Part shown: piece by piece, positions 8,508 to 27,917 of the stretch | Layout of the letters: every line of letters starts with the position of its first letter | Position numbering within the stretch: the stretch's first letter is position 1 | Translations under genes and position numbers: made by a program | Origin: DATDCY01 sp031406795 [NCBI: Candidatus Rokuibacteriota bacterium] | GTDB taxonomy: Bacteria; JAUVQV01 | NCBI GenBank assembly: GCA_031406795.1 | Contig: JANOHV010000265.1 | Span: 1-35,624 of the forward strand | Direction of reading: 5' to 3' | DNA length: 35,624 nt | The notes under the pieces: generated by a model | Databases searched by the model: none | Seen by the model: the letters and a program-made list of their open reading frames with translations, nothing else | Told to the model about the DNA's origin: nothing

Positions 8508-10055
8508 TCAGCGCGCGGGTTCCGCAGCGCCGCCGGCATCGCCGGCCTGGGCCGCCCCCCCCGATGGTACGCCGCCCACGACGAGCCGCGAGGCGTAGGA
8601 GGCAGGAATCCGGCCCGCTTCGACGGGCTTGAAGTGAAACGTCAGCTGCGCGAAGTAGAGGTTGTTCGCGTAAGCGCGCAGCGCGTCGGTGGAGTCGTTC
8701 TTCCGGTAGCCGTACCCCAGATCCAGCTGCACCCGTTTGACCAGCAGCAGAACGAGCCCGGCCGCGACCCGCGTCGTGCGGTCCTCGACCTCGGCAAGCG
8801 CCTCCTCCCGGATCGACGTGCTCGTCCAGCTCCCCGCCAGATCGAACGCCGACCAGGGGGTGAGCAGCCAGCGCGCGCCGACAGTTGGTCCCCAGGCCGT
8901 TTCCTCACGGCCGGATTCCCGGAAATCCCGCGTCTCGTGCCACCCCCCGAGATCGAGCGTACTCCCGAGACGGGCCCGGATCGAAACTGCCGCCGAGGCG
9001 CGCCCGGTTTCGAGCGTGTCTCCATCCGGCTGAACCTGTTGACCCAGTTGGTACCCGAGATTCCACGAACCGCCCCGCTCGAGAATCCCCCTGATCTCAG
9101 CGCCACCGAGAAGGTTGGAACGGATCCCAGCAACGGGAGGCACGGCTGCCGCGCCACCGGCCACCGTACCATCGGCCGCAGTTCCCTCGACCGCCGTCCC
9201 CGCCCCCGTCGCCGGTTCGCCGTCCTCCTCCCGGCGCCACTCGAGGCGGTACCGCAGCGAAAGGTGTTCGCTCCACCGCTGTTCCACCGCCAATGACGCG
9301 CGCAGCTCGGTGTAGTCCGGCGCCAGGTCCCGGCCGACCTTGCCGTACGCCGCGCGCAACTCGCTCCCCCAGAGCGGGCTCCAACGGTGGCGGAGAAGCG
9401 CTTCACCGTAGTGCCGCTCCAGCCGGTCGAGTTCCTCGATCACGTCAGCCGCAGAATCCGTCTCCTCTGCAACCGGTGCGGCAGCCCCGCTCGCCGAGTA
9501 AGACTCCAACTCGCCGCGGTAGGCCAGCTCGAAGGTGCTTCTCGCTCCCAATTCCGCTTCCAGCCCCGTCCGCACGGAGAGCAGATTCCTGTCGACCTGG
9601 TCCACCCAGGCCTCCCCCTCCCGCTCCTGAGATCGAGGGACCCGGGAGCGCTCCTCGCGCGCCTCCAGGAAGAACGGAGACCACCGCCGCCAGCTCAGGT
9701 CCGCCGTGACGGCGTGCGTCCAGAAGGAATCCCGCTCTTCGTCGCCCTGGAACATCGAATAGGCGCCGTTGTAGAGCAGTTGCAGCCGATCGCGCTCCCC
9801 GAGCCACATGGCCGTGAGGCCCGGGCTGACGATAAAGATCGTTTCCTTCACCGGTTGTCGCAGCGCGGCCTCACCCTCAGCGCGCTCTTCGACCGCTGTC
9901 CGCGGGTCGAGGTGGAAGTTGTCGTCGATCTGCGCGCCCGCGCCGAGAGAGATGTCGTAGATCAGCGCCGCACGCGCCTCGGAGGGCTGCCCCGCGATCA
10001 GCATGATGCCCGCCGCCAGAGCCCCGAACGCAATTCGGGACTGCCGGAGCCTCAC
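8508..10055 (-). CDS. Outer-membrane beta-barrel protein of the EPS locus
   Basis: A 515-residue exported protein. The N-terminus has a signal peptide (about 1-29, ending near SEARA). The rest alternates polar and aromatic or hydrophobic residues in many amphipathic strands (for example DRLQLLYNGAYSMF, LSLRYRLEWRRE, VQLDLGYGYRKND), with the aromatic-rich strand LYFAQLTFHF near the end. A disordered Ala/Gly tail follows that strand. This matches the outer-membrane protein found in PEP-CTERM-type EPS loci (TIGR03016-like by recollection). Its GTG start overlaps the preceding export gene (GTGA). It is a likely outer-membrane channel for the polymer, because the two OPX proteins upstream lack a membrane-spanning C-terminus. 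Confidence 0.75.
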   Translation of the reverse strand: MRLRQSRIAFGALAAGIMLIAGQPSEARAALIYDISLGAGAQIDDNFHLDPRTAVEERAEGEAALRQPVKETIFIVSPGLTAMWLGERDRLQLLYNGAYSMFQGDEERDSFWTHAVTADLSWRRWSPFFLEAREERSRVPRSQEREGEAWVDQVDRNLLSVRTGLEAELGARSTFELAYRGELESYSASGAAAPVAEETDSAADVIEELDRLERHYGEALLRHRWSPLWGSELRAAYGKVGRDLAPDYTELRASLAVEQRWSEHLSLRYRLEWRREEDGEPATGAGTAVEGTAADGTVAGGAAAVPPVAGIRSNLLGGAEIRGILERGGSWNLGYQLGQQVQPDGDTLETGRASAAVSIRARLGSTLDLGGWHETRDFRESGREETAWGPTVGARWLLTPWSAFDLAGSWTSTSIREEALAEVEDRTTRVAAGLVLLLVKRVQLDLGYGYRKNDSTDALRAYANNLYFAQLTFHFKPVEAGRIPASYASRLVVGGVPSGGAAQAGDAGGAAEPAR

Positions 10056-11137
10056 CGCGGCACCATCACGATGTCGCCGGGGGAGAGCCGCAGGTTCCGC
10101 GACAGGTCGGCCCTTTTCAAAATCCGCGCGAGATCGACGGGCAGCTCCTGCTTCTTCCCGTCGGCCGCGGTGCGAACGACCCTGACGGCGTCCAGATCGG
10201 CGTACTCCGTGCCGCCGCCGGCTTCGACGAATGCATCGAGCAGCGTCAGGCCCTCCCGAAAGGCGATGGTCCGCGGCGTCCGGACCTCGCCGACGACCAG
10301 AACCCGCTCCGGAGGCAGTTGGGGCGGCTTGAACGGAACAATCACGATGTCCCCGGGCGCGATCACGACATTCTTCTCCAGCGCGCCGCTTTTCAGCAAT
10401 TCGTCGATGTCGACCGGGATTTCCACCGTCTGGCCGCTCCCCTGCCGGCGGGCGATCTTGGCGCTCTTCAAGTCGGCAGCCGGCGTGCCGCCGCCGGCGC
10501 CGAGGTAGGCGTCGAGCAGCGTCATCCCCTCCACGTACGGCAGCGCGTGCGGCTGGACGACCTCGCCCACGACGAGAATCCGCCCGAGCGTCACTTCGCG
10601 GGCCGGGATTGCCAGGATGTCCCCCGGCGACAGCAGCGGATTGATGCCGGGCGGCTTCTGTGTCCGCGCGGGGAGCGAGAGGTCGACCGGGATCCGCGCC
10701 TCACCCCGCAGGATGTACGCGCCCGCCAGGTCGGCATCGGCCGTTGCCCCCCCCGCCCGGGCCAGCAGCTGCCGGGCCGTAATCGGACCCGCGAGGGAGA
10801 ACACGCCGTTGGCGATCGCGCCCTGGGTGTAGACGCGGAAGCTGGTGGGGCCGGAGACCGTCACCGTCACGTTCGGCGCGTTCACGAACGACGAGAGCTT
10901 TTCAGCGAGGATCTGCCCCAGCTGCATCGCCGTGAGCCCCTCGGCCTTCACGTCGCGGATCAGCGGCAGCGTGATCTGCCCGTCGGGCCGCACGATGACG
11001 CTCTGGCTGAGTTCGGCGTTCTTCCAGACGTTGATCTGCAGGGTATCGCCGCCGCCGATCAGGTATTCCTGCTGAGTCCGGGCAGGCGCCGACACCAGCA
11101 GAAAGACCAGCGCACCCGACAAGAACCATCGCTTCAT
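10052..11137 (-). CDS. Polysaccharide export protein, OPX/Wza family, multi-SLBB (361 aa)
   Basis: A periplasmic export protein. After a signal peptide (cleavage near SAPA/RTQQ) comes the poly-export (PES) domain opening EYLIGGGDTLQINVWKNAEL (about 24-43). SLBB-type repeats follow, each with a GLTLLDAxxxAGGGT-like motif (two clear ones, one weaker), and the protein ends LSPGDIVMVPR. There is no lipobox Cys and no C-terminal amphipathic helix, the element that forms the outer-membrane pore in E. coli Wza. GGGAGG precedes the ATG at 11137. It is a diverged paralogue of the gene just upstream and overlaps the barrel gene by four bases. Confidence 0.9.
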   Translation of the reverse strand: MKRWFLSGALVFLLVSAPARTQQEYLIGGGDTLQINVWKNAELSQSVIVRPDGQITLPLIRDVKAEGLTAMQLGQILAEKLSSFVNAPNVTVTVSGPTSFRVYTQGAIANGVFSLAGPITARQLLARAGGATADADLAGAYILRGEARIPVDLSLPARTQKPPGINPLLSPGDILAIPAREVTLGRILVVGEVVQPHALPYVEGMTLLDAYLGAGGGTPAADLKSAKIARRQGSGQTVEIPVDIDELLKSGALEKNVVIAPGDIVIVPFKPPQLPPERVLVVGEVRTPRTIAFREGLTLLDAFVEAGGGTEYADLDAVRVVRTAADGKKQELPVDLARILKRADLSRNLRLSPGDIVMVPR

Positions 11138-11168
11138 CCGCGGACCTCCCTGATCGCCATTGCCGTCT

Positions 11169-11987
11169 TCATCGGGGCACCACGACGATGTCCCCCGGAA
11201 GCAGGTTGAGATTCTTCCCGAGTTCGCCCTTCTTGAGCATGCGTGCGAGATCGACCTCGATCTGCGCCTGCCGCCCGTTCGTCCCGAGGCGGAGCACCTT
11301 CGCCGAATCCAGATCGGCGTATTCCGTGCCGCCGCCCGCCGCCACGAACGCGTCGAGCACGGTCAGCCCTTCCTGAAACGGCAGGCTGCGGGGCGTCCGG
11401 ACCTCCCCCGCCACGAGCACCCGACGGGTGGCATTGCGGAAGGGCACGACGAGAACGTCCTCCGGCATCAGCGCCGGGTAGGACTCGGCGGCCGGCCCGG
11501 AACCGGCCCGCGGCTGCAGATCGACCGGAATACGCTCGCCGCCGCGCAGGATGAACGCCTCGGCGGGATCCCCCTCCGCCGTCGGCCCCCCGGCGCGCGC
11601 CAGCAGCTGCAGCACATTGATCGGCGCGGAGAGCGGGAACATGCCGTTCGCCACGGCCCCGTTCGTGTAGACCCGGAAGTTGGTCGCGGTGACGACGGTG
11701 ACCGTGACGTTCGGGGCGTTCACCAGCGCAGAGAGTTTGGCCTCGATCATCTTCCCGAGGTCCATCGCCGACTTGCCGCTCGCCGGCACGTCGCGGATCA
11801 GCGGCAGCGTGATCATCCCGTCGGGACGGACGGTCACGGTCTGGCTCAGCTCGGGGTTCTTCCAGACGTTCACCTGCAGGCTGTCGCCCCCGCCGATGAG
11901 GTAGGCCTGGTCCCCCGCGGCCGCGCCGCTGCACAGCGCCACCAGCCCGGCGAACATCACACCGGCAAACCTCGCGCCCCCGCTCAT
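11169..11987 (-). CDS. Polysaccharide export protein, OPX/Wza family, short form (272 aa)
   Basis: The second OPX protein of the locus. A signal peptide (about 1-25, ending SGAAAG) is followed by QAYLIGGGDSLQVNVWKNPE, the PES domain, one clear SLBB unit (EGLTVLDAFVAAGGGTEYAD) and the end LLPGDIVVVPR. It aligns over most of its length with the downstream 361-residue paralogue but has one SLBB unit fewer. It lacks the pore helix of Wza and has no convincing lipobox. The ATG at 11987 is fixed by GGAGGAG six bases upstream and overlaps the kinase stop (ATGA). Confidence 0.9.
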   Translation of the reverse strand: MSGGARFAGVMFAGLVALCSGAAAGDQAYLIGGGDSLQVNVWKNPELSQTVTVRPDGMITLPLIRDVPASGKSAMDLGKMIEAKLSALVNAPNVTVTVVTATNFRVYTNGAVANGMFPLSAPINVLQLLARAGGPTAEGDPAEAFILRGGERIPVDLQPRAGSGPAAESYPALMPEDVLVVPFRNATRRVLVAGEVRTPRSLPFQEGLTVLDAFVAAGGGTEYADLDSAKVLRLGTNGRQAQIEVDLARMLKKGELGKNLNLLPGDIVVVPR

Positions 11988-14900
11988 GAGCTGCTCCTCC
12001 CGTAGCCGTTCTCCTGCCGCAGACGGACCGGGCTCCCCGGTCCCGCGGCCTGCGTCTGGGGAAACCTCATCGTGAATGTCGTGCCCTTGCCGGGGCTGCT
12101 GCTGACCCGCACTTTGGCGCCGTGGTTCTCGAGGATCTTGTGCACCACGGAGAGCCCGAGGCCCGTCCCCTTGGCCTCCTTGGTCGTGAAGAAGGGATCG
12201 AAAATGCGCGCGAGGATCTCCGCTGGGATGCCGACGCCGGTGTCGCTGAAGCGCACCAGGACCTCCGCGCGCCGCTGCCGCTGTTCCCGCAGACCGTCGA
12301 CGATCGCGCGCACCTGTTCGAGCACGTGAGCATTTTCGAGCGGCCGCGGCAGAACGCCGACGATCCCCGGGATGCGCGCCCAGCGCTGATCGCCCGCCCC
12401 GGCGTCCGCGATGACGAGAATCTTCGCGTCGGGGGCGTATTCCCTGGCCATCATCACGAAGAAGTCCACCCGGTTCGGGTCGGTGTCCGCGAAATCCAGC
12501 AGCAGCACCTCGGGGGGCGTCGCCGGGCTCTGGCGGAAGGAATCGATCGCCTCCCCGTCGCCGCGGAAGAAGCGCACTTCCCACCCGGGAACATCCATCA
12601 GCGCCCGCAGAAAGGCCAGGTCGCCGGCGTTGTCGTACACGACCGCGATGCTCGCGGGTTCCGACCCCGCGGAGGCGGACGCGTCCACCTCGGCGACGAT
12701 GTCGATCGCGCCGCCGGAGGGCATCGCGTCGACGGCGTTGGCGATGAGATTGACGAAGACCTGCTGCAGATCCTGCGCGTTGCCCCAGACGGCCGGGAGC
12801 CCCTCGCCGAAGGTGCGGCGGACCTCGATGCGACGGCGTCCGATCACGACCTGGAAAAGTTCGAGCGCGACATCGATCGCCTCGGGCAGGGCGATCCAGC
12901 CCGAAGAGGCCGCGCCGCTTCGCGAGAACGACAGCAGGTTGCCGACGATGCGATTAATCCGGAGCACGTCCTTGCGGATGCTCTCGAGCACTTCGCGGTA
13001 TTCCGCATCCTTCTCCCGCCGCTTGAGGATTTCCAGGTTGAAGCTGATCGCCCCGAGCGGGTTGTTCAGCTCGTGGGCCATGCCCGCCGAGAGGATCGAC
13101 AGGGAGTTGAGCTTCTCCGAGAGGACCATCTGCTGCTCGAGGCGCTTCTGACCCGAAATGTCCACGAGCAGACAGACGACCGCGGCCTGGTCTCCCTGCC
13201 CGACCCCCCAGGGCGAGAAGGTGATCTGATAGGAGCGGTCTTCGCCGGCCTCGCCCGCGAGGTGGGCGACGCGCCGCTCCACGCCGCCCGAGGCCACCGT
13301 CTCGTGCATGCAGCACCAGGAACAGGGCAGCCGCCGCCGAAAAAGTGCCTCGTAGCACTTGCGGTTGCGCACGTCGCCCTGAAGCTCCGACGCCACCGGA
13401 AACACCCCGCGGTGGAAGAACTGCAGATCGTATTTCGGGTTGACGATGTAGAGCGTCTCCCCCATGCCGCGAATGACGGCCTCCATCTTGCGCTGTTCGC
13501 TCTCGAGGGAGACTCGCAGATCCTTGAACGCCGTGACGTCCCGCATCACCTCGATGGCCGCCGTGACCTTGCCCTCCACGTCGCGCAGCGGGAACGTGTC
13601 GAGACGGTACCAGTGCGTCTTCCCCTCCTCGACACGGGTGATCTCCCGGTTGACCGGGGCGTCCTGCGCGATCGACTCCTCGCAGGCGCAGGTGCCGCAG
13701 ACTGCCGCGCCGTCGACCGACCAGGGGCAGACCTGTCCTTCCAGCGATGCGGGCGAGCCGGCCAGAAGCTGCCGATACGTGGCATTGCAGAACACGATGT
13801 GCCGCGAGGCGTCGACGACGGCGATCCCGTAGCCGATGTTGTCGAAGATTCGCTGGTGCAGATCCTTGAGCTGGACGACTTCCTTGAGCAGACGCTCGTT
13901 CTCCGCGGCCGCCACCGCGAAAGGGTCGAGTTCGCGCTCGAAGGAGAGCAGCAGGTGGCCGGCCTCCGCCCCCGTGTCCGCCGGCGTCAGAAGCGCCTTC
14001 AGCTCGCGGCCGCAGGGAATTTCCAGGGGGTGAATGGCATCCACTTCCCCGGTCAACCCCGGCAGGACCTCCGGGAGGTCGCGCAGTCCGGTGTCCCTGA
14101 GAAGGACAACGGAGGCCGGCTTGCGCCTGTCCGGGCGGGGATCGTCGAGACGCGCGGAGGCGCGCCAGAGGTCGGTGGCGGGAACGGCTTTCATCGGGTA
14201 GAGCACCCGGTCGGGCTCCACCGCCGCCGGGAAGCGCAGACTGCCGTCCGTGCCGATCTCCTCGGGCACCAGCAGGATGAAGCGTCCGTCGCGGCTGCGA
14301 TGCGCCAGCGGGAAGATCGAGAAGGGTCCCAGGCCATCCCCGTCGCGGTCCATCGCGCCCGGATCGAGACCGAGCGCCTCCCGGTAGGCCACGATTGCCG
14401 GCCGACCGTTGCATTCGAGGATCCGGTCGCCCTCGGCGCGGGTGACGAAAAGCTTCGCGCCGACCGGCTCGAAGGAGTGATACCGCTCGAGTGAGAACCG
14501 GAGATCGGTCTTGATCATGGTCAGGACGACCCCGCTCGTAACAACCCGCCCATCGGCCAGGATCGCGGCTCGTGCGCCGCCCGCGGGGAGCGAGAGCATC
14601 AGCAGGGGCACCCGCGAGTGGAGTTTCCGCCGCAGAAAAGTCGCGATCTTGAGCTCCCGCGAATGCCGCTGGCCGGAGGGCGAGATCACCGCCGCAAGCG
14701 CAAGGGAGGGACGGCGGTAGCGGTACCAGTGATAAAGATGCCGCTCGGCGGATGTGGCAGGCATGTCGCGTGCGGACGGGGAGATGAAGGAATCCCGACA
14801 AGCCTCCTGCGCTTCGTGTTCCCACCCCGCCTCGGCGCCATCGCCGACGCCGGTGCCAACCTTCGCCCGAAGATGCCGCGTGGCGAACAGCATCACCCGC

Positions 14901-15154
14901 ACTCCGGCGGGAGCAGGTGATTCACCATCGGCGGGCGTCGGGTCGGAGACCAGGCCCATCAGCGGGCAATCCCCGAGGGACTCGCGTGCGCCGCTCAGGA
15001 TCTCCCCGGCGTCCGGCGTCCCCCGGCCGACCAGCAGGGCCAGCGCGGGCGGCAGCCCCCCTGACTGTTCCAGCGCGGCACGCACGGCCGCACGCCCCTG
15101 CTCGAAGGGGTTCCCTGCCGCGGGCGCGCCGTAGCCGACGAGCAGCCTGATCAT
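11984..15154 (-). CDS. FIST-PAS-PAS histidine kinase with a receiver-like domain inserted in its ATPase domain
   Basis: A 1056-residue soluble sensor kinase. Residues about 1-410 look like a FIST sensor (the FIST_C hallmark NGRPAIVAYREALG lies at 249-262). A PAS domain at about 431-545 has Cys476, 486, 489 and 491; a second PAS at about 553-670 has Cys600, 611, 614 and 615. The dimerisation domain has H694 in MAHELNNPL. The ATPase N-box (NLIANAVDAM, 802-811) is followed by one strand (GGAIDIVAEVD), then about 140 extra residues (826-963), before the matching strand and G1 box (VLVRFSDTGVGIP, 965-977), the F-box FDPFFTTK and G2 GTGLGL. The insert resembles a receiver: D841 for the acidic pair and D887 in VLLLDF as possible acceptor, but Ala916 and Arg937 where Thr/Ser and Lys are expected. 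Reading is continuous. Overlaps of four bases at both ends tie it to the sugar transferase and export genes. Confidence 0.88.
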   Translation of the reverse strand: MIRLLVGYGAPAAGNPFEQGRAAVRAALEQSGGLPPALALLVGRGTPDAGEILSGARESLGDCPLMGLVSDPTPADGESPAPAGVRVMLFATRHLRAKVGTGVGDGAEAGWEHEAQEACRDSFISPSARDMPATSAERHLYHWYRYRRPSLALAAVISPSGQRHSRELKIATFLRRKLHSRVPLLMLSLPAGGARAAILADGRVVTSGVVLTMIKTDLRFSLERYHSFEPVGAKLFVTRAEGDRILECNGRPAIVAYREALGLDPGAMDRDGDGLGPFSIFPLAHRSRDGRFILLVPEEIGTDGSLRFPAAVEPDRVLYPMKAVPATDLWRASARLDDPRPDRRKPASVVLLRDTGLRDLPEVLPGLTGEVDAIHPLEIPCGRELKALLTPADTGAEAGHLLLSFERELDPFAVAAAENERLLKEVVQLKDLHQRIFDNIGYGIAVVDASRHIVFCNATYRQLLAGSPASLEGQVCPWSVDGAAVCGTCACEESIAQDAPVNREITRVEEGKTHWYRLDTFPLRDVEGKVTAAIEVMRDVTAFKDLRVSLESEQRKMEAVIRGMGETLYIVNPKYDLQFFHRGVFPVASELQGDVRNRKCYEALFRRRLPCSWCCMHETVASGGVERRVAHLAGEAGEDRSYQITFSPWGVGQGDQAAVVCLLVDISGQKRLEQQMVLSEKLNSLSILSAGMAHELNNPLGAISFNLEILKRREKDAEYREVLESIRKDVLRINRIVGNLLSFSRSGAASSGWIALPEAIDVALELFQVVIGRRRIEVRRTFGEGLPAVWGNAQDLQQVFVNLIANAVDAMPSGGAIDIVAEVDASASAGSEPASIAVVYDNAGDLAFLRALMDVPGWEVRFFRGDGEAIDSFRQSPATPPEVLLLDFADTDPNRVDFFVMMAREYAPDAKILVIADAGAGDQRWARIPGIVGVLPRPLENAHVLEQVRAIVDGLREQRQRRAEVLVRFSDTGVGIPAEILARIFDPFFTTKEAKGTGLGLSVVHKILENHGAKVRVSSSPGKGTTFTMRFPQTQAAGPGSPVRLRQENGYGRSSS

Positions 15155-16530
15155 GTGCCCTGCGCGAAGAAGACGACTTTGAGCGTCTTGATCGCGATCC
15201 AGATGTCGAGCTTCCAGGACATGTTCTTGATGTAATAGAGGTCGAACTTGAGCTTCTCGATCGCGTCCTCGACCGAAGCGCCGTAGCGGTACTGGACTTG
15301 AGCCCAGCCGGTGAGTCCGGGCTTCACCGAGAAACGCAGCACGTAGTACGGAATCTCGCTCTTGAGCTTTTCGACGAAGAACGGCCGCTCGGGCCGCGGG
15401 CCGATGAAGCTCATCTCCCCTCTGAGCACGTTGATGAATTGCGGGATCTCGTCGAGGCGGGTCAGCCGCAGCCAGCGGCCGACCCGGGTGACCCGGTAGT
15501 CGCGAACGCTCGCCCAGACCGGACCGGTCCCGTCTGCGGCATCGCTGCGCATCGTCCGAAACTTGATCAGATTGAACGGCCGCTCGCCCTGGCCGGTGCG
15601 CTCCTGGCGGTAGAAGACCGGCCCCTTCGAGTCGAGCTTCAGCAGCAGCGCGATGATCCCCAGCAGCGGCAAGGAGAGCGCCAGCCCCACAAGCGAGGCG
15701 GCGATGTCGAACACCCGTTTGAAATGCCGCAGAACCGGCCGCCGGAGCAAGTCGAACCCGCCGCTGTAGAGGAACCAGGAGTCCTCGACGTTCTTGATGG
15801 GGATCTGGCCCATCGCGCGCTCGTAGAAATTCGGCATGTCGATCACTTCGACCCCGCTCATCTTGATCCTGAGCAGATTGCCGATCAGCTCCGCGTTCTG
15901 GATGGACGAAATGGCCATGATCACCAGATCGACCCCGTGCTGTGCCACGGATTGCTGTAGCTGCTGCGCGGTGCCGACCACGCGGACACCCTTGTATTCG
16001 ACGTTCCTCTTCGACATGTCGTCGTCGATCACGCCGGCGACCCTGATGCGCAGCCGCGGCTCACGCAGCGTGCAGTCGATTACCGTGCGGCCCGCCCAAC
16101 CCGCGCCGAGCACCAGCGCGGAGCGCACGACTCGCGCGCGACGCTCCTTCAGCGCGGAAACGAAGCGGACCACGAAGACCTCGGCCGCCATCGCCACCGC
16201 CAGCACCGCGAAGAGCTCCCCCGCGCCCGCGCGGTCGACGGTGAAATAATAGGCGAGTCCGAAGAGCAGGACTACGGCCAGGGTGGCGGCGGCGATCCGC
16301 AGCGAGACCATGGGGGAGCCCCAGGAGCAGCGCGGGTCGTAGAGCTGCGCCACGGCGAGCATCACCGGGAACGCCAGCGCCGAAAGGAGCAGCCAGGGGG
16401 CGCTCAGCAGCACGGCAATCGGGTCGCCGTGACGCGCCAGCCCGTACCCGGCGATCGCGATGACCGGGACGTTGGCGTCGAGCGCCATGTGGATCAGGGT
16501 CGTCCTTCCCGCCGCCGGTGCCTGGAACAT
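15151..16530 (-). CDS. Polyprenyl glycosylphosphotransferase starting EPS synthesis (EpsB/WcaJ type)
   Basis: An inner-membrane enzyme that moves a sugar phosphate from a UDP-sugar to undecaprenyl phosphate, the first step in building the repeat unit. The N-terminal half has several membrane helices and a Rossmann-like CoA-binding-type region (VLGAGWAGRTVI). The C-terminal half is the catalytic bacterial sugar transferase domain: KRVFDIAASLVGLALSLP, GPVFYRQERTG, FRTMRSDA, RLDEIPQF, MSFIGPRPERP and KPGLTGWAQV. The length of 459 fits the exosortase-locus type. No clear Shine-Dalgarno is seen before the ATG at 16530, 15 bases after the receiver stop; an ATG at 16488 is the alternative. Which sugar it transfers cannot be told. 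Confidence 0.92.
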   Translation of the reverse strand: MFQAPAAGRTTLIHMALDANVPVIAIAGYGLARHGDPIAVLLSAPWLLLSALAFPVMLAVAQLYDPRCSWGSPMVSLRIAAATLAVVLLFGLAYYFTVDRAGAGELFAVLAVAMAAEVFVVRFVSALKERRARVVRSALVLGAGWAGRTVIDCTLREPRLRIRVAGVIDDDMSKRNVEYKGVRVVGTAQQLQQSVAQHGVDLVIMAISSIQNAELIGNLLRIKMSGVEVIDMPNFYERAMGQIPIKNVEDSWFLYSGGFDLLRRPVLRHFKRVFDIAASLVGLALSLPLLGIIALLLKLDSKGPVFYRQERTGQGERPFNLIKFRTMRSDAADGTGPVWASVRDYRVTRVGRWLRLTRLDEIPQFINVLRGEMSFIGPRPERPFFVEKLKSEIPYYVLRFSVKPGLTGWAQVQYRYGASVEDAIEKLKFDLYYIKNMSWKLDIWIAIKTLKVVFFAQGT

Positions 16531-16545: not shown

Positions 16546-17016
16546 TTATCGCTTCCAGAAATAAGACAGGATGATGCCGAGGATCATCCACAGGGGGATC
16601 GAGATGACAATCATCCAGATCATCCCCCGGGAAAAATTGAGCTGCGCGACCAATTGCCGCTTCTCGAGACCGCGCTCCAGCGCCGCGCTGAACTTCTCGA
16701 TCGACACCGGCTTCTCGATGTAGTCGTAGGCGCCCAGCGTCAGCGTCTCGACCGCGGAGGCGAGATCCGAATACCCGGTGATTACCATGACGACCACGTC
16801 CTTGTTGATCCTCTTGAGTTCGCGGATGAACTCCACGCCGCTCATGCGCGGCATCTTCAGATCCGCGATGACCATGTCGTAGTCGCCGTCCTGGAATTTC
16901 ATCAGGCCGTCCTGACCATCCACGGCCCAGGTCGACGTGTGCCCCAGCTCCTTGATGATCCGGCCGAGCGCGGTGGCGAAACTCTCGTCGTCGTCCACAA
17001 CCAGCACGGAAGCCAT
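16546..17016 (-). CDS. Membrane-anchored stand-alone response regulator receiver, copy 1
   Basis: A 156-residue protein made of one complete receiver domain and one C-terminal membrane helix. All phosphorylation residues are present: the acidic residues in VVDDDE (8-10), acceptor D52 in VIADLKMP, T80 in MVITGY and K102 in IEKPV. After the last receiver helix the chain enters a hydrophobic segment at about 131-153 (MIWMIVISIPLWMILGIIL) and ends YFWKR, a positively charged tail. There is no DNA-binding or enzyme domain. It matches the product of 25341-25811 without gaps, 111 of 156 residues identical by hand count. GGAAGGAG precedes the ATG. It is the first gene of the EPS unit, so it probably receives phosphate from the FIST kinase two genes on, or from PrsK; that is inference. 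Confidence 0.88.
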   Translation of the reverse strand: MASVLVVDDDESFATALGRIIKELGHTSTWAVDGQDGLMKFQDGDYDMVIADLKMPRMSGVEFIRELKRINKDVVVMVITGYSDLASAVETLTLGAYDYIEKPVSIEKFSAALERGLEKRQLVAQLNFSRGMIWMIVISIPLWMILGIILSYFWKR

Positions 17017-17278: not shown

Positions 17279-19348
17279 CTATCTATTCTGCGTCGCCGGG
17301 AACTCCGGTGAGCGTCCATCGGAAACCCGATCGTTCTTCCACAGCAGCGCCGTGTTCTTCCCGGCCACTTTCGCCTGAAGAAGCGACTGGTCCGCCCTCC
17401 GGAGCAGTTCTTCCGCGACAGTCGACGTGTCGGGATAGATGGAAAGGCCGACGCTCACGGTGAACTTCCGCTGAGGGCCGGCGGCCGCGTCGGCCGGCAG
17501 CCCCGTGGACTCGATGAGGGTACGGATCTTTTCGATGGTGTTCATCGCGCCGTCGCCATCGGTTCCGGGGAGGACGAGCACGAACTCGTCGCCTCCGTAG
17601 CGGGCGAGGATATCGACCGATCGCAGCTGCTGCCGGACGGTGCCGGCGATCAGCTTCAGGACTCTGTCGCCGTACTCGTGGCCCATGCTGTCGTTCACGT
17701 TCTTGAAGGAATCGATGTCGAGCATCGCGACGGCCAGCCGCTGTCCGAACCGCTGTGCCCGCTGCAGTTCGATGGTGAGCTGCTCATCGAGGAAGCGCCG
17801 GTTGTGGACGCCGGTGAGGTGGTCGATGGAGGAGGAGACCCGCAGCGCCTGGACCTCCTCTTCAAGCCGGGCCTTGCAGATCGCAGCCGAGGCCTGCAGG
17901 CTCAGCCGTTCGAGCAGCGACAGATCGCGGGGGGTGAAGACCTCCTCGCCGTCGCGCTCCGTGAGATGCAGCACGCCAAGCGCGCTCCCATTGTCGCGCA
18001 GCGGCACCGACATGTAGGATCGCGAGGCATAGGGAAACTCCCGCGCCCCAGTCCGTCCGGGTTCCGGGCCGGTGTCCTGGACCAACAGTGAGCGCCGGTT
18101 GAAGAAGACCTTGTGAGAGACGGAATCGGGGACCAGCTCTGCGATGGTACCGGAGATCGGCGCGTGGTCGCCCCGCAAGGCGTGCGCGGTGATCCGCCCC
18201 TTCTCCTCGGCCAGCAGGATTGATCCCCGCCGCGCCCGCAAGCTGCACATGGCGGCCTCGAGAGCGAGCGGGAGCAGCTCATCGACGCTGTGGGCAGTGA
18301 GACACTTCTCGGCCATCTGGCCGAGCAGCTTCGCCTCCTCATCGCGCTGTTGGGCCCGTTCCCGACACTTCAGGTGCACCACCCGCGCCGCGACGAAGGC
18401 CGCGGCCGATTCCAGCAGCCTCAGATCCCCGACGCTCATCGCCGCAGTGGACACCGCAAGATAGCCTGCGACGCTCGTGCCATGGTCGAGTCGCTGGACA
18501 ACCAGCGGCACGTCGGCGCAATCGAGACCGGCCCTGAGCATCGCCTGGCGATCGGCGAGGACCAGGCGCGATCCCCGACCGTGCAGCTCGAAGATCCGCG
18601 GCCAGTCCTGGTTGGCCAGCACGTGCAGCGTCTCCTCCCCCAACCCGATCGAAGAATGCACTTCGAGCCGGTCGGCCGCATCCCCCGTGAGCAGTATCGC
18701 CGCTCCGGTCATCGCAAAGATCCGGCCGAGCGATTCGAGCACTTCCCTCGTCCCACCCGGACCGCTCTCGTGAAACGCAGTCGCCTGCCGCGCAAAATCG
18801 ATCAGCCCGCGCCTTTGATCGAGCTGGTTGCGGCGATGCGCCAACCGCGTGTCCCCGGCGGTGAACGAGGTCGCCAGGCGCCGCACGAAGGCGGCGATCC
18901 GGTCCAGCTCCGGGGTGCCGAGAGTCCGCACACCGGCCAGGCTCTCCAGGAACAACTCACGGGAAAGCTGATAGCGTTCGATGAACCCGAGGCACTGTTC
19001 CCCGCCGAACACCTCGGTGAGCACCCGCCCGACGAGGATGACCGAATGCAACCGATTGCGCCTGCGGATCGGTATGACACGGAAGTTCAGTCCGGCATAG
19101 CACCGGCCGGAGAGGATCTTCCGGGCATCCCGGCACCTCGCAACCTTGCTGAAACAGTCCTTCTGACAGGCCGCCTGCGTTTCGGGGTACCGCTTGAAGA
19201 AAGCGCACAGCGCCGGGAGCTTCGGGGGTGCGTGCACGACGATCCCCTTTGCATCGAAGACCTGGACGGAAAGGCCTGCGAACTCCGAAAAAATGTTCTG
19301 GAATTCGGACCAGAGACCGTCGCTGTTACCGATGCGCGTCGCCGACAA
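17279..19348 (-). CDS. Diguanylate cyclase with PocR-like and GAF sensor domains
   Basis: A 689-residue cyclic-di-GMP synthase. Residues about 8-165 resemble a PocR ligand domain, with Cys48, 61, 65, 72 and 83 and CYAGLNF typical of that family. Two GAF-like modules follow (about 200-325 and 350-490). The GGDEF domain (about 505-670) has an intact active site, RYGGDEF (583-589), and an RSVD inhibitory site at 576-579, so it should be active and product-inhibited. No membrane helix is seen. The start is TTG at 19348, fixed by AAGGAG eight bases upstream. It lies just upstream of the EPS operon on the same strand but 262 bases away. Cyclic-di-GMP commonly switches on EPS synthesis; a link here is inference. 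Confidence 0.9.
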   Translation of the reverse strand: MSATRIGNSDGLWSEFQNIFSEFAGLSVQVFDAKGIVVHAPPKLPALCAFFKRYPETQAACQKDCFSKVARCRDARKILSGRCYAGLNFRVIPIRRRNRLHSVILVGRVLTEVFGGEQCLGFIERYQLSRELFLESLAGVRTLGTPELDRIAAFVRRLATSFTAGDTRLAHRRNQLDQRRGLIDFARQATAFHESGPGGTREVLESLGRIFAMTGAAILLTGDAADRLEVHSSIGLGEETLHVLANQDWPRIFELHGRGSRLVLADRQAMLRAGLDCADVPLVVQRLDHGTSVAGYLAVSTAAMSVGDLRLLESAAAFVAARVVHLKCRERAQQRDEEAKLLGQMAEKCLTAHSVDELLPLALEAAMCSLRARRGSILLAEEKGRITAHALRGDHAPISGTIAELVPDSVSHKVFFNRRSLLVQDTGPEPGRTGAREFPYASRSYMSVPLRDNGSALGVLHLTERDGEEVFTPRDLSLLERLSLQASAAICKARLEEEVQALRVSSSIDHLTGVHNRRFLDEQLTIELQRAQRFGQRLAVAMLDIDSFKNVNDSMGHEYGDRVLKLIAGTVRQQLRSVDILARYGGDEFVLVLPGTDGDGAMNTIEKIRTLIESTGLPADAAAGPQRKFTVSVGLSIYPDTSTVAEELLRRADQSLLQAKVAGKNTALLWKNDRVSDGRSPEFPATQNR

Positions 19349-21937: not shown

Positions 21938-23056
21938 ATGGTCAATGTCCGCCGGTACCTCTTCGGCCAACTGCGACGCGACCTCGCGCGCAAGATGGTC
22001 TTCGTCGCCGGACCGAGACAGGTCGGTAAAACCACTCTCGCAAAAAGCCTGCCGGGCGCCGCAGCCGGTTACCTGAACTGGGACATCGCAGAGCATCGGG
22101 AACGAATCCTCAGGCGCGAGCTGCCGGTGGGTCCGCTCTGGATCTTCGATGAGATACATAAATATCGGCCCTGGCGGAATTACCTCAAGGGTCTTTTCGA
22201 TGCTCGACGCGCGGGGCAACACATTCTCGTGACAGGCAGCGCGCGGCTGGATCTCTACCGCCGCGGCGGCGACTCCCTCCAGGGACGTTACCATCTCCTG
22301 CGCATCCACCCCTTCTCGGCCAGGGAACTCGGAATCCGCTCCCCGTCGGAGTTGCGCGATCTGCTGGTCCTCGGTGGCTTCCCCGAGCCGTACTTCAGTG
22401 GGTCGGAAGCCGAGGCCCGGCGCTGGTCGCGGGAATACCGCACTCTGATTGTGAGAGAGGAAGTCGCGGATCTGGAGCGGGTCCAGGACCTCGGCACCCT
22501 CGAGTTGCTCGCCTTACGGCTGCCCGATCTCGTCGGGTCCCCCCTCTCCGTCAACGCCCTCCGGGAAGACCTCCAGATCAGCCACAAGACAGCCTCGCGC
22601 TGGATCGATATCCTGGAACGCCTCTATGCTGTGTTCCGAATACCTCCCTTCGGAGCGGCCCGCATCCGCGCCGTGAAGAAGGAACGGAAGCATTACCAGT
22701 GGGACTGGTCAACGGTACGCGAAGAACCAGCCCGCTTCGAGAATCTGGTCGCCGCTCACCTGCTCAAATGGGTGCATTACCGTCAGGACGTGGAAGGGCT
22801 TGATATCGAACTGCATTACTTCCGGGACACCGATGGACGGGAGGTGGACTTCGTGGTCGCCGAAAACCGCACCCCGACCCTGATGGTGGAGTGCAAATGG
22901 GGCGATCAACCCGTCGACAAGTCCCTGTTCTACCTCAAGGCCCGTTTCCCGGACTGTCCCGCCTGGCAGGTGAGCATGACCGGCATCAAGGACTACCGCA
23001 CTGTGGAGGGCATCCGGGTCGCGCCGGCACTCGCGCTTCTCGGGACATTGGTGTAA
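21938..23056 (+). CDS. AAA+ ATPase of the AAA_14/DUF4143 family
   Basis: A 372-residue protein with an N-terminal P-loop ATPase: Walker A GPRQVGKTTLAKSL (about 25-38), Walker B LWIFDEIHK and a sensor segment ILVTGSARLDLYRRGGDSL. A helix-turn-helix-like linker (VNALREDLQISHKTASRWI) is followed by a C-terminal DUF4143 domain whose REVDFVV and LMVECKW recall the D...ExK core of restriction-type nucleases. Members are abundant in mobile and defence-rich regions, and no general function is agreed. It lies on the plus strand between the two pieces of a vapC gene. No Shine-Dalgarno is obvious before the ATG. Confidence 0.88.
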   Translation: MVNVRRYLFGQLRRDLARKMVFVAGPRQVGKTTLAKSLPGAAAGYLNWDIAEHRERILRRELPVGPLWIFDEIHKYRPWRNYLKGLFDARRAGQHILVTGSARLDLYRRGGDSLQGRYHLLRIHPFSARELGIRSPSELRDLLVLGGFPEPYFSGSEAEARRWSREYRTLIVREEVADLERVQDLGTLELLALRLPDLVGSPLSVNALREDLQISHKTASRWIDILERLYAVFRIPPFGAARIRAVKKERKHYQWDWSTVREEPARFENLVAAHLLKWVHYRQDVEGLDIELHYFRDTDGREVDFVVAENRTPTLMVECKWGDQPVDKSLFYLKARFPDCPAWQVSMTGIKDYRTVEGIRVAPALALLGTLV

Positions 23057-24693: not shown

Positions 24694-25053
24694 CTACAGT
24701 CCGAAAACGTCCCGCAGACCCAGCTTCACGCGCGCAAAATCCTCCGGATGGAGTGTCCCGAGAACGCGCTTGATCAGTGCCTTCTCGACGGCAAGAATAT
24801 TCGAGATCCGCGCCGTGCTGGGATGCTGCAGGCCGACAGCCTGCCAATGTTTCAGAGGATAGTCGCCGGCACCCGGACTGCGGTAGTAGCGCGGTTGGCT
24901 GCTGATAGGGACTACAATCACGTCCGCGATCTTGTCGTGGATCGCAACCACGCTCACCACGAGCGCCGGACGCGGCTTGGCTCCCCCCTGACCGGTAAAG
25001 GGGACGTTCACGACGACCACCTGACCGTGTCTACAGGTAGTCGTAGAGGGCAT
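24694..25053 (-). CDS. PemK/MazF-type endoribonuclease toxin
   Basis: A toxin of about 119 residues. GQVVVVNVPFTGQGGAKPRP is the typical MazF/PemK opening (the GxxxxxxFP-like strand and the KxRPxxV loop), followed by ALVVS and DVIVVPISSQ, which carries the conserved Ser/Thr region. This family cleaves mRNA. The ATG at 25053 overlaps the end of the antitoxin gene by 23 bases, the usual coupled arrangement, and GAAGAAG precedes it. It is followed without a gap by the hipA fragment. Confidence 0.85.
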   Translation of the reverse strand: MPSTTTCRHGQVVVVNVPFTGQGGAKPRPALVVSVVAIHDKIADVIVVPISSQPRYYRSPGAGDYPLKHWQAVGLQHPSTARISNILAVEKALIKRVLGTLHPEDFARVKLGLRDVFGL

Positions 25054-25258
25054 CTTCTTCGTTTTCCCATGCCCGAGCAAGCTTCCTCCCGGCAAGCTGC
25101 TTCCACTCCAACTCCTCAAGATCCTTCTCCGACAGTGGCTGAATGATGGCATAGGGCTTGCCGTGGTGAGTGACAACGATAGGCTCGCTGTTCTTCCGGG
25201 CTCGCGCAAGATATTCGGACAGCCCGTCCCTCACCTCCGCCACGCTCGCAAAACGCAT
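25031..25258 (-). CDS. Phd/YefM-type antitoxin
   Basis: A 75-residue antitoxin. The N-terminal part MRFASVAEVRDGLSEYLARA followed by EPIVVTHHGKPYAIIQPL is the Phd/YefM DNA-binding and dimerisation fold. The acidic C-terminus (ARAWENEEDALYDYL) is the segment expected to wrap the toxin. AAGGAG precedes the ATG. It forms a pair with the PemK-like toxin, which overlaps its 3' end, and probably represses the pair's own promoter in the 82-base gap before the receiver gene. Confidence 0.88.
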   Translation of the reverse strand: MRFASVAEVRDGLSEYLARARKNSEPIVVTHHGKPYAIIQPLSEKDLEELEWKQLAGRKLARAWENEEDALYDYL

Positions 25259-25340: not shown

Positions 25341-25811
25341 CTACCTCTTCCAGAAATACGCGAGCATAATCCCCAGAATCAGCCACAGCGGTATGGAAAC
25401 GGCGATGGTCCAGATAGCTCCCTTGGCGAAACGCAGCTTCGAGAGCAGGTGCTTCTTCTCGAGTCCCCGCTCCAGGGCGGCCCGGAACTTCTCCACCTCG
25501 ACCGGCTTCTCGACGTAGTCGTACGCCCCGAGGTTGATCGTCTCCACCGCGGTGGAGAGATCAGCATAACCCGTGATGACCATGACCACCGCATCGCGGT
25601 CGATCTTCTTCACCTCGCGGATGAACTCGATGCCACCCATGCGCGGCATCTTGAGGTCGGCGATCACGACGTCGAATTCCCCGTCGTGATACTTCGCGAG
25701 CCCATCCTGCCCGTCGACCGCCCGCTGTGAGGTGTGGCCGAGTTCCTTGACGATCCGACCCACCGCCGTCGCAAAACTGTCGTCATCGTCGATAATGAGT
25801 ACGGAACCCAT
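25341..25811 (-). CDS. Membrane-anchored stand-alone response regulator receiver, copy 2
   Basis: A 156-residue twin of the product of 16546-17016. The receiver is complete: acidic residues in IIDDDD, acceptor D52 in VIADLKMP, T80 in MVITGY and K102 in VEKPV. The membrane helix spans about 131-153 (AIWTIAVSIPLWLILGIML) and the chain ends YFWKR. Differences from copy 1 are mostly conservative and concentrate in 121-130, just before the helix, a possible specificity segment. It lies 33 bases downstream of the PrsK kinase, in the place where the DNA-binding regulator PrsR is normally found. PrsK is therefore its likely kinase. What the phosphorylated form does at the membrane is unknown. Confidence 0.88.
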   Translation of the reverse strand: MGSVLIIDDDDSFATAVGRIVKELGHTSQRAVDGQDGLAKYHDGEFDVVIADLKMPRMGGIEFIREVKKIDRDAVVMVITGYADLSTAVETINLGAYDYVEKPVEVEKFRAALERGLEKKHLLSKLRFAKGAIWTIAVSIPLWLILGIMLAYFWKR

Positions 25812-25844: not shown

Positions 25845-27917
25845 TTACGAGCAATCGACCGGAAAATAAACCGTAAAGATCGTGCCCTTCCCGACCTGGC
25901 TCTGTACGTCGATCCTGCCGCCGTGCGACTCCACGATCTGGCTGCACTGGTAGAGGCCGATGCCGAGACCGCCGTCCTTCGTCGTGCGAAACGGCCGGAA
26001 CAGGTGGTTCTTGAGAAAGTACTCGTTCATTCCGGAGCCGGTATCCGCCACGCTGACGAACGCCTTGCCGTCCTGCGTACCGGTCTTCACGCGAATCTCG
26101 CCCCTCTCGCCAACGGCGTCCGCCGCGTTGAGGATGAGGTTCAGCACGACCTTCCCGATCTCGGCGGCGTCACCGCATGCCCGGGCTTCCCGAACCTCGC
26201 AGGCCAGGTCGACCCCCGGCTTCAGGCCGTTGAACTTTCGGACCGTTTCCTGCGCGATGAGGCCGAGATCGACGACCTCCGCGTGCGACATCGCCAGCTT
26301 CGGCAGCGCTCGCAATTTCAGGATCAAGCCGTTCATCTTCGACACCGTGCTCTTGATCGATTTCAGCAGATCCCGCTGGAAATCCTCTTCGCCGATGTAC
26401 TTCTCGGCGTTTTCGAGCATCAGCGAGAAGGTGTAGGCGACGTTCTTCAGATCATGGACCACGAACGAGGAGACCTTCGCGATGGCGGCCATCTCCCCCG
26501 CTTCCGTGAGTTCGGCCGAGAGACGGTAGCTCATCAGCGAGAGGCCGGCCTGGCGGGCGAGCGTCTTCATCATGTCGAAATCCTCGAACGTCAGCTTCTC
26601 CCGCATCAGACGCTGGCGGAAGAGCACCACACCTTCGAGAAAGGCCGGGCTGACGATTGGTATCGCGAGCCAGGCGCCCGACTTCCGTAGGCACTCCAAC
26701 TCCTCAGGAGAAGGGCGGTACGCGGAGTCCTCGATGGTCAAGACCCGGTTGTTCTCGAGGAAATAGCGCCACAGCCCTTCGGACACCGGGAATACGGCGG
26801 GGAGATCGGCTTCCCGCTCGATGGTTGCGAGCGCGAGCGGAGCGCCTTTCCGGTTGTGAAGGTAGAGAGCCGTTCCCTCGATCCCGAACACGGCGCTGTA
26901 AGTCTGGACGATGACTTCGTTGACGTCCCGCGCGCTGCGGCAACGCGCGAGCCGCTCAGAAAACCGCAGCCATTCCTGGCGATAGTCGTACTTCTGCGCG
27001 TAGAAGTGCTTGTTGACGAAGACCTTGATCCGGCGCCGCACCTGTTCCGAGAAGAGCAGCAGCAGCAGCAGGATCGTCGAGACGATGAACACGAAGGTCC
27101 GCGCCTCGTCCGCGTACGGCAGTTCGAGATAGCGGATCCCGCTTCCCAGGGCGCCCAAGGCCACCAGATAGAGGCCGACGACCATCAGCGTCACGGAGCG
27201 ATAGGCGATGTAGCGCGAGACCACGATGCGGGCACCGCCCCCGCGGGCGAGCCGCGAGTAGCCGACAAGGACCGCGCCGAGGATGAACACCCCCGAGCGG
27301 ACGGGGATGAGGTTCATGTTGACGGACTTGTACAGCAACCCCTGGCTGAGATAGAAAACCAGCATCCCGAGAAGGGCGACGGCCCCGAAGAATTCATACT
27401 TGATCTTCCAGCGCCCGGCGCCCGAACTGCTCCCGAACGTGGCCTCGAGATTCACCAGCGCGGCGATGCAGTAGAGCATGATGCCCAGGTAGAACCAGTA
27501 GCCGGTCCGGCCGAGCATCAAGAGCCCGGTCTCGCGAAAGGAATCCCACTGGTAGAACTGCCCGATCGGGATGATGAGAATCGCGGCGGGGAACACCAGG
27601 CCGAGGGCCGAAATCACCGACCAGAAACGCGCCGACTTCCCGCTTGGCCGCTCCCTGGCGAACAAGAGACTGTAGGGCAGCGCGATGATCGGGATCAGCG
27701 ATTTCAAGAAGAGCACCACCGCCTTATGTCGGGTGGGGTCCGCCGCCGCAGCGATGGAGAACCGGTCGAAGATCTCCATGAGGGCGAGGACAAGGAATAA
27801 CGCCGCCAGCAGCAGATCGGATGACGAACGCCGCTTCAGGAGCAGCAGCGAACTCAGCCCGGCCAGGATAAGCGCGGATGCGAAGGAGAGGGTCATTCCC
27901 GCAAGCAGGTGCTCCAT
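25845..27917 (-). CDS. prsK: PrsK-type histidine kinase of the exosortase/EPS system
   Basis: A 690-residue membrane sensor kinase. The N-terminal 290 residues hold about eight membrane helices. A GAF-like domain follows (about 315-455), then a dimerisation domain with H488 in FVVHDLKNVAYTF and an ATPase domain (N-box NLILNAADAV at 593-602, G1 ADTGSGM at 624-630, G2 LGIGLYQC at 651-658). The HDLKN motif and the LYQC G2 box are typical of PrsK, the sensor found with exosortases. The ATG shares one base with the exosortase stop (TGATG), so the two are coupled. PrsK normally pairs with the sigma54 activator PrsR; none is present here. Confidence 0.92.
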   Translation of the reverse strand: MEHLLAGMTLSFASALILAGLSSLLLLKRRSSSDLLLAALFLVLALMEIFDRFSIAAAADPTRHKAVVLFLKSLIPIIALPYSLLFARERPSGKSARFWSVISALGLVFPAAILIIPIGQFYQWDSFRETGLLMLGRTGYWFYLGIMLYCIAALVNLEATFGSSSGAGRWKIKYEFFGAVALLGMLVFYLSQGLLYKSVNMNLIPVRSGVFILGAVLVGYSRLARGGGARIVVSRYIAYRSVTLMVVGLYLVALGALGSGIRYLELPYADEARTFVFIVSTILLLLLLFSEQVRRRIKVFVNKHFYAQKYDYRQEWLRFSERLARCRSARDVNEVIVQTYSAVFGIEGTALYLHNRKGAPLALATIEREADLPAVFPVSEGLWRYFLENNRVLTIEDSAYRPSPEELECLRKSGAWLAIPIVSPAFLEGVVLFRQRLMREKLTFEDFDMMKTLARQAGLSLMSYRLSAELTEAGEMAAIAKVSSFVVHDLKNVAYTFSLMLENAEKYIGEEDFQRDLLKSIKSTVSKMNGLILKLRALPKLAMSHAEVVDLGLIAQETVRKFNGLKPGVDLACEVREARACGDAAEIGKVVLNLILNAADAVGERGEIRVKTGTQDGKAFVSVADTGSGMNEYFLKNHLFRPFRTTKDGGLGIGLYQCSQIVESHGGRIDVQSQVGKGTIFTVYFPVDCS

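What the first reader, a model, noticed from the sequence alone, without database searches (positions are those of the whole stretch)
12266..12679. Receiver-like domain nested inside the ATPase domain of a histidine kinase
In the 1056-residue kinase encoded at 11984-15154, residues 826-963 separate the N-box strand from the G1-box strand of one ATPase domain. All ATPase motifs on both sides are intact and in frame. The insert has receiver-like strand/helix spacing with an Asp at the acceptor place (D887) and one acidic residue (D841), but Ala and Arg replace the conserved Thr/Ser and Lys. A receiver placed at the beta-hairpin turn of the catalytic domain could act as a built-in lid or docking site that turns the kinase on or off. 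I know of no described kinase with this layout.
Basis: partly seen in the sequence, partly recalled or inferred. Interest (0 to 1): 0.85.

Follow-up and report, generated by a model that had tools for sequence, protein, structure and literature searches.

The report
Kinase ATPase domain holding pseudo-receiver
A bacterial signalling enzyme encoded among polysaccharide genes carries a degenerate receiver domain inserted in the middle of its own ATP-binding domain, which may be an unusual built-in control of the enzyme; what it does is untested.

Summary
N-box to G1 spacing is 160 residues; the median of 55 motif pairs in held loci is 28. The insert (826-962) is in frame with codon composition like its flanks. 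The gene overlaps both neighbours by ATGA. AlphaFold2 gives one CA domain around a beta-alpha-x5 insert (ZraS Z 22.3). The insert alone folds likewise in the best model (pTM 0.75), though only 2 of 5 models are confident. A receiver HMM scores it 21.1 bits against 6.8 for the best of 2000 shuffles.

It is a pseudo-receiver: DD1, T and K are replaced; DD2 (D841) and acceptor D887 remain. The 'lid' idea is disfavoured: the hairpin is at the strand end far from the G1 Asp. Best guess: a phosphorylation-independent regulatory or docking module joined through its last helix to the G1 strand, working like ShkA's pseudo-receiver. No second case was found, but sampling was limited and the lineage is unknown. 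New variant of a known kind.

The parts
11984..15154 (-). Histidine kinase gene, 1056 aa: FIST - PAS - PAS-like - HisKA - HATPase with an inserted pseudo-receiver
   Evidence: GC by codon position; ATGA overlaps
14402..15031 (-). FIST N domain (residues 42-251)
   Evidence: Pfam PF08495 E 1.1e-10
13523..13846 (-). PAS_4 domain (residues 437-544); PAS_4 matches in two stretches in the protein
   Evidence: Pfam PF08448 E 1.2e-18
12914..13096 (-). HisKA dimerisation/phosphoacceptor domain (687-747), acceptor H694
   Evidence: Pfam PF00512 E 5.1e-16; H694
12680..12787 (-). N-terminal half of HATPase with N-box 802-811 (residues 790-825)
12269..12679 (-). Inserted pseudo-receiver with linkers (residues 826-962); fold roughly 834-959
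12494..12496 (-). D887, at the place of the receiver acceptor Asp
   Evidence: alignments; position
12053..12268 (-). C-terminal half of HATPase (963-1034): G1 969-976, F 985-992, G2 996-1002
15151..16530 (-). Upstream gene in the operon: XrtA/PEP-CTERM-type sugar transferase, overlaps the kinase start by ATGA
   Evidence: TIGR03013 402.3 bits, cut-off 393.35
16546..17016 (-). Receiver protein with a hydrophobic C-terminal segment; candidate partner of the kinase (inferred from position only)
   Evidence: Pfam Response_reg E 1.3e-26; sequence
11169..11987 (-). Downstream gene: polysaccharide export protein-like, 272 aa, start overlaps the kinase stop (ATGA)

Best explanation
The insert is a pseudo-receiver domain placed in the beta-hairpin between the N-box strand and the G1-box strand of the kinase's CA (HATPase_c) domain. 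SHOWN by sequence and prediction: in-frame insert, intact kinase motifs, one CA fold predicted around it, receiver-like sequence and predicted fold, three of five active-site residues lost. INFERRED: it is not a working phosphoacceptor but a phosphorylation-independent regulatory module or docking site. Its last helix (942-959 in the model) runs with a link of about four residues into the G1 strand (964-971) that ends in D971, so a ligand or partner bound to the module could shift or immobilise the CA domain relative to H694 and set the balance of kinase and phosphatase activity. Candidate inputs, from gene position only: c-di-GMP from the GGDEF protein at 17279-19348, or the membrane-anchored receiver at 16546-17016. 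Output: control of the polysaccharide/exosortase gene cluster in which the gene lies.
For: Split HATPase with contiguous ZraS match and one predicted CA domain (model 8-355 against 9jfj Z 22.3, rmsd 1.8, 150 aligned, low-confidence stretches trimmed). Beta-alpha-x5 order inside it and alone. Receiver HMM and hhalign; the insert's matches in 8 of the 10 fetched loci that I read are true receivers of PilB-like and NtrC-like proteins. Pocket lost at DD1, T and K with Asp at T+1 and no Y-T pair (meaning of these positions from PMC12632262, sections 4 and 7 read). Precedent: ShkA and CikA pseudo-receivers inhibit autophosphorylation and bind ligands (PMC12632262 passages; PMC7010744 passages). Operon context.
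Against: No function was tested. No homologue with the insert was found, so no conservation shows that the insert is under selection. D841 and D887 remain. Only 2 of 5 models of the isolated insert are confident (mean pLDDT 78.7, 76.9, 44.2, 41.4, 37.0). The best Foldseek hit is a Rab GTPase (3.7e-4), ahead of the receiver-like CpaE (9.3e-4), and small GTPases are interleaved with receivers. Pfam and NCBIfam do not recognise the insert. The DDR motif of ShkA is absent from residues 826-1056. The model's relative placement of the two domains was not available.
Confidence: 0.45

Rival explanations
1. Passive or neutral passenger: a receiver copy landed in a tolerant surface hairpin, where its two termini fit, and is decaying without a role, or serves only as a spacer.
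For: Three active-site residues lost; hairpin far from the ATP site (inferred); no homologue with the insert found. Relatives with FIST-PAS-kinase layout have an undivided HATPase and a C-terminal receiver (L148, L150), so the insert is not needed for the layout.
Against: The reading frame, fold prediction and hydrophobic pattern of the insert are intact and the acceptor Asp is kept, which decay alone would not favour.
Confidence: 0.27
2. Nested hybrid kinase: the insert is a real phosphoacceptor, D887 taking a phosphoryl group from H694 (in cis or from the partner subunit) or from another kinase, as in hybrid kinases.
For: D887 and D841 remain. FIST-PAS relatives L148 and L150 are hybrids with a C-terminal receiver, while this protein has none.
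Against: T is A916, K is R937, DD1 is Y840, T+1 is Asp; D+4 is not Pro and D+8 not Gly. These positions serve phosphotransfer (PMC12632262 section 7).
Confidence: 0.15
3. One reading: the insert covers the ATP site and opens or closes it.
For: Position between two motifs of the ATP site in sequence.
Against: In the predicted strands the joint is at the end of the G1 strand away from D971; the ATP lid proper is the separate stretch between 985-992 and 996-1002 (motifs; role recalled). Orientation itself not seen.
Confidence: 0.08
4. Assembly or recombination artefact that fused a receiver fragment into the kinase.
For: No second example found; window from an unknown source with no genome held.
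Against: Insert in frame at both ends, codon composition like its flanks, ATGA overlaps with both neighbours, no long direct repeat at the joints (one search lists none involving them).
Confidence: 0.05

Closest known systems
ShkA (Caulobacter), pseudo-receiver REC1 between CA and REC2
   Same: A pseudo-receiver next to the CA domain of a HisKA kinase; regulatory role proposed by analogy (PMC7010744 and PMC12632262, passages).
   Different: There the pseudo-receiver follows the CA domain and precedes a true receiver; here it interrupts the CA domain, no true receiver follows, and the DDR motif is absent.
Hybrid histidine kinases with FIST-PAS input (L148, L150)
   Same: FIST, PAS, HisKA, HATPase and a receiver-like domain in one protein.
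   Different: Their HATPase_c is whole and the canonical receiver is C-terminal.
Rec-controlled kinase LvrB (Rec-DHp-CA)
   Same: A receiver domain regulates the kinase (PMC13269768, abstract and passages).
   Different: Its receiver is N-terminal and is phosphorylated; here it is nested and degenerate.
ZraS (PDB 9jfj), HisKA core
   Same: Best solved match of the kinase core by sequence and by predicted structure.
   Different: No insert between the two matching stretches.
CpaE/TadZ atypical receiver domains
   Same: Best receiver-like Foldseek match of the isolated insert (4n0p, E 9.3e-4).
   Different: Stand at a pilus-assembly protein, not in a kinase; 18-19% identity.

Membership tests
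HisKA-type histidine kinase | HisKA domain with acceptor His | tested here: met
   Pfam PF00512 5.1e-16, H694
HisKA-type histidine kinase | HATPase_c with N, G1, F, G2 motifs forming one domain | tested here: met
   motifs; predicted single CA fold around the insert, 9jfj Z 22.3
Receiver domain (Pfam PF00072) | Match to the Pfam model | tested here: not met
   no Pfam family at E <= 1 for the insert
Receiver domain (Pfam PF00072) | Five active-site residues DD, D, T, K | tested here: not met
   2 of 5 kept, D841 and D887
Receiver domain (Pfam PF00072) | (beta-alpha)5 fold | tested here: inconclusive
   predicted order met (2 of 5 models confident in 46); fold matches mix receivers and small GTPases
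Pseudo-receiver (definition of PMC12632262) | Computed to be a receiver relative | tested here: met
   own HMM 21.1 bits against 6.8 for the best of 2000 shuffles; hhalign 95.6%; standard libraries silent
Pseudo-receiver (definition of PMC12632262) | Lacks at least one of the five residues | tested here: met
   DD1 Y840, T A916, K R937
Hybrid histidine kinase | Receiver C-terminal to the CA domain | tested here: not met
   no Response_reg match in the protein; protein ends 22 residues after the HATPase match
Hybrid histidine kinase | Phosphotransfer from kinase His to receiver Asp | not testable with these tools
   needs biochemistry
ShkA-type c-di-GMP kinase | DDR motif after the pseudo-receiver | tested here: not met
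   no DDR in 826-1056
ShkA-type c-di-GMP kinase | Binds c-di-GMP | not testable with these tools
   needs binding assay

The most novel reading that the evidence does not exclude
A new topology of kinase control: a pseudo-receiver built into the CA domain, its alpha-5 helix continuous with the G1 strand, so that a ligand or protein bound at the module acts directly on the nucleotide-binding strand rather than through the helical bundle.
Probability: 0.3. Interest if true: 0.75.

Novelty: new variant of a known kind. Interest (0 to 1): 0.55.

Why it matters
Sensor domains of histidine kinases are usually thought to act through the helical dimerisation domain, and receivers sit before or after the kinase core. 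A receiver relative built into the ATP-binding domain would show that the CA domain itself accepts a regulatory module, would be a natural case of the domain insertion used by protein engineers, and would give pseudo-receivers, whose mechanisms are described as a mystery in PMC12632262, a case where coupling can be tested by deletion.

Tried and rejected
Relatives: P0001 in genome contigs (46 pattern matches, no relative) and viral contigs (2 matches, no relative). Insert in 148 genomes of the phylum of G002: 84 have a match at E <= 0.01, best 4.1e-7; the 8 of 10 fetched loci that I read are receivers outside any kinase ATPase domain. Insert in plasmids: one record, E 0.05, a FixJ-like response regulator by my reading. 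Insert in PDB sequences: 8 matches up to E 10, best DivK 0.055; 3 of 8 are receivers, the other 5 are unrelated enzymes.

The tool warns that an empty answer without a positive genome shows nothing. Control in a script: 55 of 55 chimeras (11 kinases, 5 receivers) give one spanning alignment of 62.7-145 bits, 0 of 11 plain kinases do; 11 of 55 fall below 84.5 bits, so a diverged natural case could be missed at these cut-offs. Phages: 68 records, none covering 80%; the top one, read, is an ordinary kinase. Plasmids with the whole protein: 1989 records, none covering 80%.

Lineage: not found. Sugar transferase relatives are at most 56% identical in the best segment and from many phyla; PrsK relatives in 21 of 247 genomes, best 35%; neighbourhoods of 8 of these show no FIST kinase with the insert. 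FIST-region matches in the phylum of G004 were few and L146/L147 are a different FIST protein.

Rejected ideas: recent duplication of a window receiver (no long repeat with the insert in 10000-15200; insert 13% identical to the window receiver). Lid over ATP: see rival.

Literature: search listings only; papers opened: PMC12632262 (outline, passages, sections 4 and 7), PMC7010744 (passages), PMC13269768 (passages).

Full report
What was claimed.

The gene. The ORF and numbering are right. Pfam finds FIST 42-251, PAS_4 (two stretches, best 437-544), HisKA 687-747 and HATPase_c in two stretches. H694, the N-box (802-811), G1 (969-976), F (985-992) and G2 (996-1002) are intact. ZraS (9jfj) aligns at 669-823 and 963-1033, which are residues 8-163 and 166-235 of that chain. 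None of the 60 best PDB sequence matches shown has a best stretch that spans the insert. N-box to G1 spacing is 160 residues; in 55 motif pairs of held loci the median is 28 and the four above 50 are mis-assigned by my reading.

Is it an artefact? The insert is in frame and its G+C by codon position (0.76/0.46/0.88) has the same low-middle, high-third pattern as its flanks. The kinase start overlaps the stop of the sugar transferase gene (15151-16530), and its stop overlaps the start of the export-protein gene (11169-11987), each by ATGA, as expected of a translated operon gene. No reads were available.

Is it a receiver? Pfam and NCBIfam are silent on the insert, and phmmer against the PDB gives nothing significant (DivK 0.055; 3 of 8 listed are receivers). 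More sensitive tests are positive: an HMM from 14 receivers scores 21.1 bits against 6.8 for the best of 2000 shuffles and -0.3 for the best of 15 other segments of the same protein (E-value 1.2e-8 there is for a single sequence), hhalign gives 95.6%, and in a sample of 148 genomes the insert's matches reach 4.1e-7, those read being receivers. AlphaFold2 on 680-1045, with nine kinases from viral contigs that leave the insert nearly without aligned rows, gives strands 815-824 and 964-971 of the CA domain flanking beta-alpha-beta-alpha-beta-alpha-beta-alpha-beta-alpha at 834-959 (mean pLDDT 74.6, pTM 0.59). The CA domain aligns to ZraS across the insert with Z 22.3, rmsd 1.8, 150 residues. The insert alone, without alignment, has the same order with pLDDT 78.7 and pTM 0.75, but only two of five models are confident. 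Its structural matches are receivers (NtrC1 Z 13.2, ComE 13.0, NtrX 12.4) with small GTPases close behind (RAB43 12.4); Foldseek puts a Rab protein first and CpaE second. The fold evidence alone would therefore not decide; with the sequence evidence a receiver relative is by far the likeliest.

What kind of receiver? From the alignments, DD1 is Y840, DD2 D841, D is D887, T is A916, T+1 D917, K R937, K-3 V934, D+4 T891 and D+8 R895. By the definition in PMC12632262 (any of the five residues missing) it is a pseudo-receiver. The loss of T and of the aromatic residue at K-3 removes Y-T coupling, and a large residue at T+1 hinders phosphorylation (sections 4 and 7 of that paper). Pseudo-receivers more often lose DD2 than DD1 (about 80% and 20% non-acidic), so this one, which lost DD1, is not typical.

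Relatives. FIST-PAS-HisKA-HATPase kinases exist elsewhere: L148 and L150 are 1092 and 1197 residue frames with a whole HATPase_c and an ordinary C-terminal receiver. Fifteen kinase loci match the joined kinase core without an insert. No insert-bearing relative was found in any search (see Tried and rejected for each sample and its limits). So the layout is known from one gene, and its conservation cannot be judged.

Surroundings. Upstream to downstream on the minus strand: PocR-GAF-GGDEF protein (17279-19348), receiver with a hydrophobic tail (16546-17016), XrtA/PEP-CTERM sugar transferase, the kinase, two export-protein genes, an outer-membrane protein, chain-length determinant and tyrosine kinase. 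Further on lie PrsK (25845-27917), a second receiver with a tail (25341-25811) and an exosortase (27917-28849). The kinase thus probably controls polysaccharide production (inferred from position).

How it may work. The two CA strands that hold the insert end about seven residues from D971, so the insert hangs at the end of the sheet away from the nucleotide (inferred from the predicted strands; coordinates and PAE were not returned). In receivers the termini lie at the opposite end from the active site, so the pocket with D887 would point away from the CA domain (general knowledge of the fold; active site at the C-terminal ends of the strands is stated in PMC12632262). This speaks against a lid and for a module that is read through its base. 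The last helix enters the G1 strand through about four residues, whereas the entry linker (about 825-833, DASASAGSE) looks flexible. A ligand or partner at the module could therefore act on the G1 strand or restrict the CA domain. [quoted passage not shown] CikA's is also inhibitory. That is a likeness in working, not membership: the DDR motif is absent and the position differs.

Verdict. Observation confirmed; interpretation partly supported; a new variant of a known kind (pseudo-receiver in a histidine kinase) with a layout I could not find described (listings, openly licensed papers only). Function is untested and may be nil.

Noticed in passing
16546-17016:- and 25341-25811:-: Two 156-aa proteins of a canonical receiver plus a hydrophobic C-terminal segment ending in WKR, 74% identical over the receiver, one near the FIST kinase and one next to PrsK.
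   Followed up: partly
10052-11137:- and 11169-11987:-: Tandem polysaccharide export-protein genes (repeat copies up to 84% identical); the ORF listing shows the second only as a longer ORF 11169-12584 that overlaps the kinase in another frame.
   Followed up: partly
kinase residues 476-491 and 611-615 (window about 13310-13729): Two cysteine clusters in the PAS region (C476, C486, C489, C491; C611, C614, C615), possibly redox or metal sites; L148 has a similar PCELCP stretch.
   Followed up: no
17279-19348:-: PocR-GAF-GGDEF protein upstream of the operon, a possible local source of c-di-GMP.
   Followed up: no
24694-25209:- and 21938-23056:+: PemK/MazF-like protein and an AAA_14/DUF4143 ATPase between the two receiver-kinase groups.
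   Followed up: no
27917-28849:-: Exosortase that passes the general EpsH model (125.8 against 105.55 bits) but none of the type-specific cut-offs listed.
   Followed up: no
L146 6499-9369:- (and L147): FIST protein with GAF-like middle and a HisKA_2-like kinase end by my reading, a different FIST-kinase layout.
   Followed up: no
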